Below, piece after piece: positions 50,901 through 56,479 of a DNA stretch of 64,000 nucleotides. This stretch comes from Hansfordia pulvinata (lineage: Eukaryota > Ascomycota > Sordariomycetes > Xylariales). Under the pieces are notes generated by a model that saw only the letters and a program-made list of their open reading frames with translations, did not search any database and was not told the origin of the DNA. Within the stretch, counting starts at the first letter, position 1; each line of letters opens with the position of its first letter. The stretch covers positions 1-64,000 of the forward strand of contig BJKQ01000037.1 in NCBI GenBank assembly GCA_006538405.1, written 5' to 3'. Made by a program: the position numbers and the translations under genes.

Positions 50901-53900
50901 TTATAGTATTTAGCTCTCCAGACGCATTTCTTGCCTATTTTCTTAAAGAAAAACTAGGTAATTGTAATGTTAAAAAAGTGAAAGATAAAAATGCTTATCT
51001 TTTAATAGTGTCTAAAAAGGAAGGAATACTAAATGTGCTTAACTTAATAAATGGTAAATTAAGATCAGAAAATAGATTTAACCAAGTAATTAATAATATA
51101 TTAAATCATGATAGATATAAAGATATAAATATTCATTTCACTATGAATTTAACTGATGATTTTAATAATCATTGATTAGCTGGTTTTTCTGATGCGGATG
51201 CTAGTTTTCAAATAAAAATTATTAACCGTAGAGCTTGCTGTGACTACGTCAAATCAAGAAATAAACCTGAAATAAGATTAAATTATCAAATCGACCTTTC
51301 GGCCCAGGACTGGGTCCATGGGGAGGGCTTGCGCACACCGCCGTGGGGTCAAAAAATTAATATATTATTAATGAAAATACAAAATTATTTAGGAGGTAAC
51401 ATTGGATATAGAAAATCCCAAGATACTTACTATTATGGTTCTACTAGTTTTGGTAGTGCTAAAAATGTTATAGAATATTTTAATCAATTTAATTTACAGT
51501 CTAGAAAACATGTAAGTTATTTAAGATGAAGAAAAGTCTATTTATTAGTACAAGACAGAGAACATTTAACAGAGACAGGGTTAATCAAAATTCAAAGAAT
51601 AAAAGCCTTAATTAACCATCACGAAGAAAAAACTACGACTCAAGATAAAGTCCAACCAAGGATATAAAAGTTCTTGAGAATTAATTAAAACAGACTTTTG
51701 TGAAAAACATCAGCTGTTTTGTTAATCAATATATTTGTTACATTTTAATTGTACCTGCTTTCGGTATAATTAGTACAGCTGTATCTGCTAATTCAAATAA
51801 ATCAATATTTGGTTACATCGGTATGGTTTACGCTATGATGTCTATTGGAATATTAGGATTCATCGTATGAAGTCACCACATGTACACAGTTGGGCTAGAC
51901 GTGGATACAAGAGCTTATTTCACTGCTGCAACATTAATAATAGCTGTACCTACAGGTATTAAAATATTCTCATGATTAGCTACATGTTATGGAGGATCTA
52001 TTAAATTAACACCTTCAATGTTATTTGCTTTAGGTTTTGTATTCATGTTTACTATCGGGGGATTATCAGGTGTAGTTTTAGCTAACGCATCATTAGATAT
52101 AGCATTCCACGATACCGTTTTGATTGTTTTACGGCAGGGGTACCCCAGCCGTATTTTTATATTAAGTTTTATGGTAATTACTTTTAATTCAGGAGCTACG
52201 TACAAAAAATTTTTTAGTGGCTTGTCTCTTAAAATGCTAAAACAAGTAGATGCGAGGGCGAGTACTCCTCCCCACCCTTCTTACTGTCCTCATCAGCGCC
52301 TTGATTATAGCTACGTCGAATATATTAAAATATTTTGAGTAGGATTGATGGATGGAAAAGGTAGTATTCAAGTTAACCATTCACGTGAACAATTCTTACA
52401 ATATAGATTAATAATTAAATTATCAGAGCTTGCGCCTATACAGAAGGTATATCCGTGTGTGCGGGGTTGCGCCCCCTCTCCGTGTGTTAACTCTCCGTGT
52501 GTAAACTCTCCTTCCGTTAAGGTTAAGGTTAAGGATCAGCAAGCTAAAGCTCACCCTAATTATAAAATGTTGGTTCAAATAGCTAAAGTAATAGGTGGAA
52601 CAGTAAGAATTGTAGGGAAAGGAGGAGATGTTATTTGAGTTGTGGATAAAAAGCAAGAAATAGAAGAAATTATAAAAATTTATGAAATTTACCCTCCTTT
52701 AACTTCAAATAAAATATCTCAACTTGCATTTTTAAAAACTTGTTTGCTAATGAAATTAGGAGCTCCTCAGACTTCAGTAAAAACTTATATACGGGAGAGC
52801 TTCCGCAGCCATAGAAATTTAAAGTATAGTCAGCAATTAGATATTATAAAATCGAATAAAAACTTTCAAACACCTAGTTATTTTAAAGCCTGATTATCAG
52901 GTTTTATAGAAGCTGAAGGTTGTTTTTCAATAAGAAAATCTAATAATCATTCTTTTTCAATAGGACAAAATGATGATGTTTATTTAATTGAAGCTATTAA
53001 ACTTTATTTTGAAGCAACTAATAAAGTTAAGGCGAGGTCAAGGGTGAGCTTGCAAGCTCACCCTCACCCTCGCCCTTACGCTAAATTTTATGCTGTAGAG
53101 ATATATAAAAGAGAAGTATTATTAAAAATAATCTCTCATTGTACTAATTATCCTTTATTAGGTGGAAAGTTAGAGTCATTAAAAAATTTCAATCAAAAAC
53201 TTCTTAAGTAAGTGTCGTGTTGTCTTGTCACCATGAAAAATTCATACGTTTTTCGGTAAAGTTAAACAATTAATTTTGCTAACGGTGAAGTCTAGGCCTC
53301 AATTGGCCATTTAAAGGGAGCTTACTTATCCAGAGGATAAGCAAGGAGGGGTAGGGTGGAGGAGTTTACGGTCTCTCCCACCCCTCCCAGCCGAGCTGGG
53401 TTTATAGTGATCAAGCTTCGGATAAGTTTGCACGAGGTAAGCTCTCCAGCTCTTATTTTTAATAAAAAAGAATAGAGGTAGGTGTATAACTCCGTAACGT
53501 AGAGCTTGTTTATACAGAGAAAGTAAAAAATTAGGAAAATTGCTCTCCTTCTCTGATTAGTGTAAACATGCTAGCTCTCTTTTTTACCGTAGAATACGAG
53601 CCTCTTATTTTGTTTTGACTACGTCACAGCAAGCACTTTTTTAGGCATAAGCTCTTGATGGTCGTAATTATAAATTACTTGTTGTTTTAATGCGAATAAC
53701 AAGAAAGAGTGCACACTAGATAATACCGTGGAAACCAAAGCTAATTTATTTTTAGTAAGTAGGATCCGTAGAGGCTAAACGTGACAGTCGAAAGTTTATT
53801 AAGTTAAATAATTAGATAAGTTATAGTCCGGTCCACTGTGTGAACAGTGTTGTGTTGTATGCAAAGGGTTTTTAACGTACCCTATATAAATATTATAAAT

Positions 53901-56479: not shown

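What the first reader, a model, noticed from the sequence alone, without database searches (positions are those of the whole stretch)
52114..56479. Two competing 3' splice junctions in cox1: one gives COX1, the other an in-frame chimera with a 514-codon ORF
Seen: the group I core of intron 4 ends at G53901, followed by ACTTACTAT. True exon 5 begins ACTTATTAT after G55978, 2077 bp later. From 53902 a frame in phase with exon 4 stays open to 55467. It contains NPPKPYSFV...VPLQSQ, a diverged copy of the COX1 C-terminus, followed by a membrane helix and coiled coil. Known: alternative 3' splice sites in group I introns have been reported in fungal mitochondria. Inferred: the intron arrived with, or duplicated, a cox1 3' exon plus its trailing ORF. 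The cell may then use distal splicing for COX1 and proximal splicing for a fusion or to express the ORF.
Basis: partly seen in the sequence, partly recalled or inferred. Interest (0 to 1): 0.82.

Follow-up and report, generated by a model that had tools for sequence, protein, structure and literature searches.

The report
Split COX1 tail inside mitochondrial intron
In this fungal mitochondrion the last part of the COX1 gene appears to have been doubled and its jobs divided: the downstream copy still completes the respiratory enzyme, while the upstream copy, lodged in an intron, has lost the enzyme part but kept a conserved extra tail protein that some other fungi carry fused to COX1.

Summary
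The cox1 intron starting at 52114 has one recognisable group I core, whose natural 3' end is G53901|ACTTACTAT; the only intact exon 5 found starts at 55979. In three other mtDNA contigs with this intron the exon follows P7 after 36, 50 and 56 nt (here 78 nt to the near site, 2155 to the far one), so the near site is the ancestral acceptor. The ORF 53899-55467 is not a stray ORF: its last 341 codons are a conserved C-terminal extension (CTE) of COX1. Two of 12 homologues carry it fused in frame to an intact COX1 exon 5; five keep it behind only a remnant of the COX1 tail, one of them sister to a fused form. Here exon 5 is doubled: the upstream copy kept the CTE but lost the haem-ligand part; the downstream copy kept COX1 and ends just past the old junction. 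COX1 therefore needs the far acceptor. The near acceptor would join the CTE in frame to exons 1-4; the 176 codons before the CTE are stop-free (model P about 1e-4), confirmed by two further contigs, which suggests translation through them. No RNA data exist: near-site splicing is the best guess, not shown.

The parts
51739..52113 (+). cox1 exon 4 (start approximate), ends ..AFHD
   Evidence: PF00115 match 1.1e-41 over exon 4; translation; 115 of the 120 listed relatives carry AFHD followed by non-COX1 sequence, the other 5 lack the motif
52114..55978 (+). Intron 4 if spliced to the far acceptor (3865 nt); needed to make COX1
   Evidence: Only intact exon 5 found lies at 55979; junction inferred, no RNA
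52114..53211 (+). LAGLIDADG frame continuous with exon 4
   Evidence: PF00961 3.5e-23
53771..53901 (+). 3' part of the group I core: P7 strands GGCTA (53773) and TAGTC (53824), P9 hairpin 53834-53849, near acceptor G53901
   Evidence: Alignment with L037, L038, L042; motif positions. Earlier core parts (P3-P6) read by eye only
53899..55467 (+). ORF': 522-codon frame in phase with exon 4 through the near acceptor
53902..54288 (+). Decayed upstream exon 5: first 9 nt ACTTACTAT kept, then repeat-rich, stop-free, no COX1 homology detected
54289..54441 (+). Remnant of the COX1 C-terminus ([20 protein letters not shown])
   Evidence: 0 of 500 shuffles
54442..55467 (+). CTE: former C-terminal extension of COX1, one clear membrane helix, conserved hydrophilic C-terminal part
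   Evidence: 12 homologues, 2 fused to COX1; coding-like codon use; hydropathy
55468..55978 (+). Spacer with dispersed repeats ending at the far acceptor; no second core found
55979..56479 (+). Intact cox1 exon 5, ends ..[12 protein letters not shown]
   Evidence: PF00115 2.3e-31; groups with CTE-fused exons
56458..57792 (+). ORF2 trailing exon 5, overlapping its end in another frame; unrelated to the CTE by profile comparison
   Evidence: One homologue, P0133, 24% over 62%, E 6e-5; coding-like codon use

Best explanation
Ancestrally cox1 exon 5 ran in frame into a C-terminal extension (CTE) and intron 4 spliced at 53901. Exon 5 was then doubled, or supplied again from a close relative, downstream. 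The upstream copy lost the COX1 part but kept its splice junction, reading frame, COX1 tail stub and CTE; the downstream copy kept COX1 and lost the CTE. Today one ribozyme core most likely serves two acceptors. Splicing to 55979 makes COX1. Splicing to 53902 joins exons 1-4 in frame to the stub and CTE, so the CTE is made as a fusion (probably trimmed), as intron ORFs continuous with an upstream exon are. Shown: homology, fused relatives, one recognisable core, ancestral near site, open frame. Inferred: order of events, use of either acceptor in RNA, protein trimming.
For: CTE fused in frame to exon 5 in P0003 and P0006, detached with a COX1-tail remnant in P0001, P0002, P0004, P0005, P0011. 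Fused P0003 and detached P0004 are sisters (100/99), apart from the detached window group (100/98). Near junction matches homologous introns: TAGTC-to-exon 56 (L037), 50 (L038), 36 nt (L042) against 78 nt near and 2155 nt far; exon start ACTTACTAT in L038 and L042, ACTTACTAC in L037. 176 stub codons without a stop against 15 and 10 stops in the other + frames; Markov orders 1, 2, 3: 0, 1 and 3 of 20,000 simulations open; longest open run in 15 stretches that I took as non-coding, six frames, is 140 codons. Frame confirmed by C44 and C63. CTE 335/341 identical to P0001, stub 76/93. Downstream exon 5 groups with CTE-fused exons.
Against: No RNA or protein data. No convincing P1 or P10 found for either acceptor. 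Stub codon use is not coding-like (-0.449 against 0.103 for the CTE). An ATG at 53899 in the same frame allows a start without near-site splicing. Part of the open frame could be inherited from exon 5. 88 further stub residues of ORF' have no counterpart in P0001, whose ORF as deposited starts later. The fused product would carry two thirds of a dead COX1.
Confidence: 0.55

Rival explanations
1. The intron is always removed whole (52114-55978). The CTE is an intron-resident gene translated from a start of its own (ATG 53899, 53923, 54391 or 54463) on precursor or excised-intron RNA; the near site is no longer used.
For: In-frame ATGs exist, one exactly at the intron's old end. P0008 and P0011 begin with Met near the helix or the COX1-tail remnant.
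Against: Starts at 54391 or 54463 do not explain the stop-free 176 codons. The intron's other ORF is continuous with exon 4.
Confidence: 0.3
2. The upstream copy and CTE are a decaying relic that is not expressed; the open frame is left over from exon 5 and the CTE.
For: Stub diverges (76/93 identity to P0001, 29/118 to P0002) and is not coding-like.
Against: CTE conserved at 335/341 with P0001 and 242/329 aligned with P0002; coding-like codon use; detached CTEs stay open in five homologues.
Confidence: 0.1
3. A second, separate intron lies between 53902 and 55978, so that two introns are removed in tandem.
For: Two relatives (L037, L039) appear to carry a second intron just downstream of this site.
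Against: No GACTA/GGCTA..TAGTC pair at group I spacing in 53902-55978; no Rfam group I or II match (which also missed the real core of intron 4); alignment of 55800-55978 to six core segments no better than shuffles (29 to 295 of 300 as good).
Confidence: 0.05

Closest known systems
[quoted passage not shown] seen here only as cited in PMC7902536 and PMC3073962; the Podospora nad1 case is recalled)
   Different: The ORF is not an endonuclease but a former part of the host protein; RNA proof is missing here
Splicing-mediated core creep in Ophiostomatales (PMC7902536 section 21; PMC10448965 passages)
   Same: Proposed splicing that joins a downstream intron ORF to the upstream exon
   Different: Those involve tandem or nested introns and LAGLIDADG/GIY-YIG ORFs
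Mobile-ORF C-terminal replacement: Glomus atp6, atp9, cox2, nad3 and Allomyces atp6 (PMC3630166 passages)
   Same: Two copies of a gene's 3' end in tandem
   Different: There the upstream copy is transcribed with the gene and lies next to an endonuclease ORF; here the upstream copy is dead as COX1 and lies in an intron behind its core
Tremella introns carrying a duplicate of the following exon (PMC7315562 abstract and passages)
   Same: An intron containing a copy of the next exon
   Different: There the copies are highly similar and RT-PCR showed the upstream copy in use; here the upstream copy kept only a tail
Glarea lozoyensis mt ORF2 (PMC3783487 passages)
   Same: Helotialean mt ORF with a 132-residue part 78% identical to COX1, the rest without known relatives

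Membership tests
Group I intron at the cox1 AFHD|TYY site | Group I core (P7/P9) upstream of the 3' splice site | tested here: met
   Aligned with L037, L038, L042; Rfam RF00028 gave no hit
Group I intron at the cox1 AFHD|TYY site | U.G pair in P1 and a P10 pairing | tested here: inconclusive
   No convincing P1 or P10
Group I intron with alternate 3' splice sites | Both acceptors preceded by G and followed by the same exon start | tested here: met
   G|ACTTACTAT and G|ACTTATTAT
[quoted passage not shown]
Group I intron with alternate 3' splice sites | Both spliced RNAs seen in the cell | not testable with these tools
   No RNA data for this organism
Mobile-ORF C-terminal replacement | Endonuclease ORF between the two copies of the 3' end | tested here: not met
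   Between the copies lies the CTE, with no endonuclease domain; such a layout is seen in L038 instead
Twintron or tandem introns | Two intron cores | tested here: not met
   (limited sensitivity)
COX1 C-terminal extension family (named here) | In-frame continuation of COX1 exon 5 in relatives | tested here: met
   P0003 and P0006, 2 of 12 homologues

The most novel reading that the evidence does not exclude
A single mitochondrial gene has divided a fused protein in two by exon doubling inside a self-splicing intron. One ribozyme, choosing between two acceptors, decides whether a transcript yields COX1 or the former COX1 tail protein, and this kind of split has arisen more than once in fungi that carry the tail.
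Probability: 0.4. Interest if true: 0.82.

Novelty: new variant of a known kind. Interest (0 to 1): 0.62.

Why it matters
It would show a route for splitting a fused mitochondrial gene without losing either product: complementary decay of two copies of one exon, with a self-splicing intron choosing between them. It also brings out a conserved extension of COX1 of unknown role, for which I saw no description in the listings of my ten answered full-text searches (open-licence library only, and only searches were aimed at COX1 tails or fusions). RNA sequencing of one strain would decide it.

Tried and rejected
Rejected: C44, C63 and C56 as the mtDNA of a relative. They hold 1 letter A in 64,463, 0 in 12,423 and 0 in 19,347, with A read as C and otherwise the same sequence apart from gaps, mostly at A, and a few other differences; so they are read or assembly artefacts. 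Rejected: ORF2, the cox2-trailing ORF and the cob-trailing ORF as detectable copies of the CTE (hhalign probabilities 0.5, 0.2 and 0.1 per cent). Rejected: a second core. My loose core descriptor hit in all seven stretches, three control stretches included, and was not used; only its plain motif list was.

Led nowhere: P1/P10 modelling. Scans for CTE DNA in viral and genome collections and for exon 5 in viral contigs found no relative. Pfam and NCBIfam gave only sub-threshold hits for the CTE itself; a profile search of solved structures gave none.

Full report
What is there. The window is fungal mitochondrial DNA read with table 4, the first 64 kb of a 99.4-kb contig, C37, of a 46.8-Mb assembly in 63 contigs. 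C37 1-19497 recurs at 69848-89351 (99.9%), so the circle is about 69.85 kb; the contig's far end is an inverted duplicate. The intron in question lies after ..AFHD; 115 of the 120 listed relatives of the exon 4-LAGLIDADG frame (7996 scored, capped) carry AFHD followed by non-COX1 sequence, and 5 lack the motif. The intron opens with a LAGLIDADG frame continuous with exon 4 (PF00961), then a group I core, then the disputed stretch, then exon 5 at 55979.

The near acceptor is the old one. Four contigs with homologous introns were used: L037, L038 and L039, filed as viral, and L042, filed under Streptomyces. The cores of L037, L038 and L042 align closely with the window's. From TAGTC of P7 the exon follows after 56 nt (L037), 50 (L038) and 36 (L042); in the window ACTTACTAT follows after 78 nt and the far exon 5 after 2155 nt. 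In L038 and L042 exon 5 starts ACTTACTAT, exactly as the near copy does; in L037 it starts ACTTACTAC. In L039, which has the same intron core, the 3' junction was not located. Searches for a second core between 53902 and 55978 were negative; Rfam also missed the real core, so its silence weighs little.

What the ORF is. Twelve proteins match the CTE. P0003 and P0006 read from a complete COX1 exon 5 part (..[15 protein letters not shown]) straight into the CTE; Pfam finds COX1 in 2 of 13 alignment members. By eye in alignment A1, P0001, P0002, P0004, P0005 and P0011 keep the CTE behind only a remnant of that COX1 tail; P0004 also keeps the start MGAVFAMF with the middle gone. P0007, P0009 and P0010 are too short to tell, P0008 begins just before the membrane helix, and P0012 is divergent. 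Because detached forms keep the COX1 tail, fusion is the likely older state. In the tree the detached window group (100/98) and the pair P0003 fused + P0004 detached (100/99) are separate, so detachment probably happened at least twice. The DNA around these proteins could not be seen. P0002 and P0133, the only homologue found for ORF2, both report a longest contig of 8138 bases, which suggests a similar layout there; that they share one contig is inference.

Is it a living gene? Between the window and its nearest relative P0001 the CTE differs at 6 of 341 residues and the aligned stub at 17 of 93 (Fisher 4e-8); 88 further stub residues have no counterpart in P0001. With P0002 the figures are 242 of 329 and 29 of 118 identical. 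CTE codon use is coding-like (0.103), as is ORF2's (0.077); the stub's is not (-0.449), though it scores above the other two + frames (-0.802, -0.757); one frame of the other strand scores about the same (-0.473). Yet the stub's 176 codons hold no stop, against 15 and 10 in the other + frames; Markov simulations of order 1, 2 and 3 gave 0, 1 and 3 open frames in 20,000 each, and the longest open run in 15 stretches that I took as non-coding is 140 codons. The three-letter contigs are an accidental check: in 53902-54430 C44 matches all aligned C, G and T and C63 all aligned A, C and G of C37; C63's gaps fall only at T, C44's only at A but for one C beside an A. So the frame is real and probably translated through, while its sequence drifts.

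How it most likely works. COX1 can come only from the far acceptor: the near copy lacks HFHYV and most of exon 5, and exon 5 was otherwise matched only in other contigs of the same mtDNA (which scored 40 of 50 candidates). The near acceptor would give exons 1-4 joined to stub and CTE in frame. The LAGLIDADG frame of the same intron is likewise continuous with exon 4, so reading on from the upstream exon is already the habit here. The ATG at 53899 leaves open a start of its own in the same frame. P1 and P10 could not be modelled for either site. I put the two-acceptor model at 0.55 and an own start at 0.3. The CTE's role is unknown; a tether or assembly role at the matrix-side COX1 tail is a guess resting on recall.

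Origin. The downstream exon 5 groups with the CTE-fused exons (96/93) and, like them, has LPLQSK at the junction, which favours doubling within the lineage, or supply from near kin, over a foreign exon. That tree has only six rows and 102 columns. A related accident is visible in L038: a second COX1 C-terminus, 146 of 162 bases identical, beyond a LAGLIDADG-like ORF.

Literature. Sellem & Belcour 1994 was seen only as a citation (not held). Core creep by splicing: PMC7902536 section 21 and PMC10448965 passages. Doubled C-termini: PMC3630166 passages. Introns carrying the next exon: PMC7315562 abstract and passages. Truncated extra copies: PMC4162613 passages. A Glarea mt ORF with a COX1 part: PMC3783487 passages. 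PMC8393795, PMC8260586 and PMC3073962 were seen as passages. All others were seen only in search listings.

Noticed in passing
G000 contigs C44 (L025-L030, L035), C63 (L006-L007), C56 (L033-L034): The same mtDNA assembled in a three-letter alphabet, A read as C throughout (1 A in 64,463 bases of C44, none in C63 and C56). A sequencing or base-calling artefact that inflates the assembly and imitates a G+C-rich relative at 67-70% identity.
   Followed up: partly
39314-40189: A GNAT acetyltransferase-like ORF (PF13302, 1.7e-26) in the mtDNA between nad5 and cob.
   Followed up: no
30882-32441, 43654-46713, 56458-57792: cox2, cob and cox1 are each followed by a long ORF that overlaps the end of the gene in another frame and has no Pfam match.
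   Followed up: partly
L038:6041-7488: In another fungal mtDNA the COX1 C-terminus is present twice (146 of 162 bases identical) with a LAGLIDADG-like ORF between the copies, the classical mobile-ORF layout.
   Followed up: partly
L037:9621-11084: The COX1 tail runs without a stop into a COX2-like sequence (recognised from recall) and on for 488 codons in all. The open-frame test started in the intron upstream and so stopped early.
   Followed up: partly
L037-L039 (IMG/VR) and L042 (NZ_BMRP01000034.1, titled Streptomyces albospinus): Mitochondrial cox1 DNA filed as viral contigs or within a bacterial genome: misfiled or contaminant records.
   Followed up: no
54024-54175, 44297-44431 and elsewhere: Dispersed G+C-richer repeats lie in intergenic DNA and also inside open frames such as the cob-trailing ORF and the stub.
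   Followed up: no
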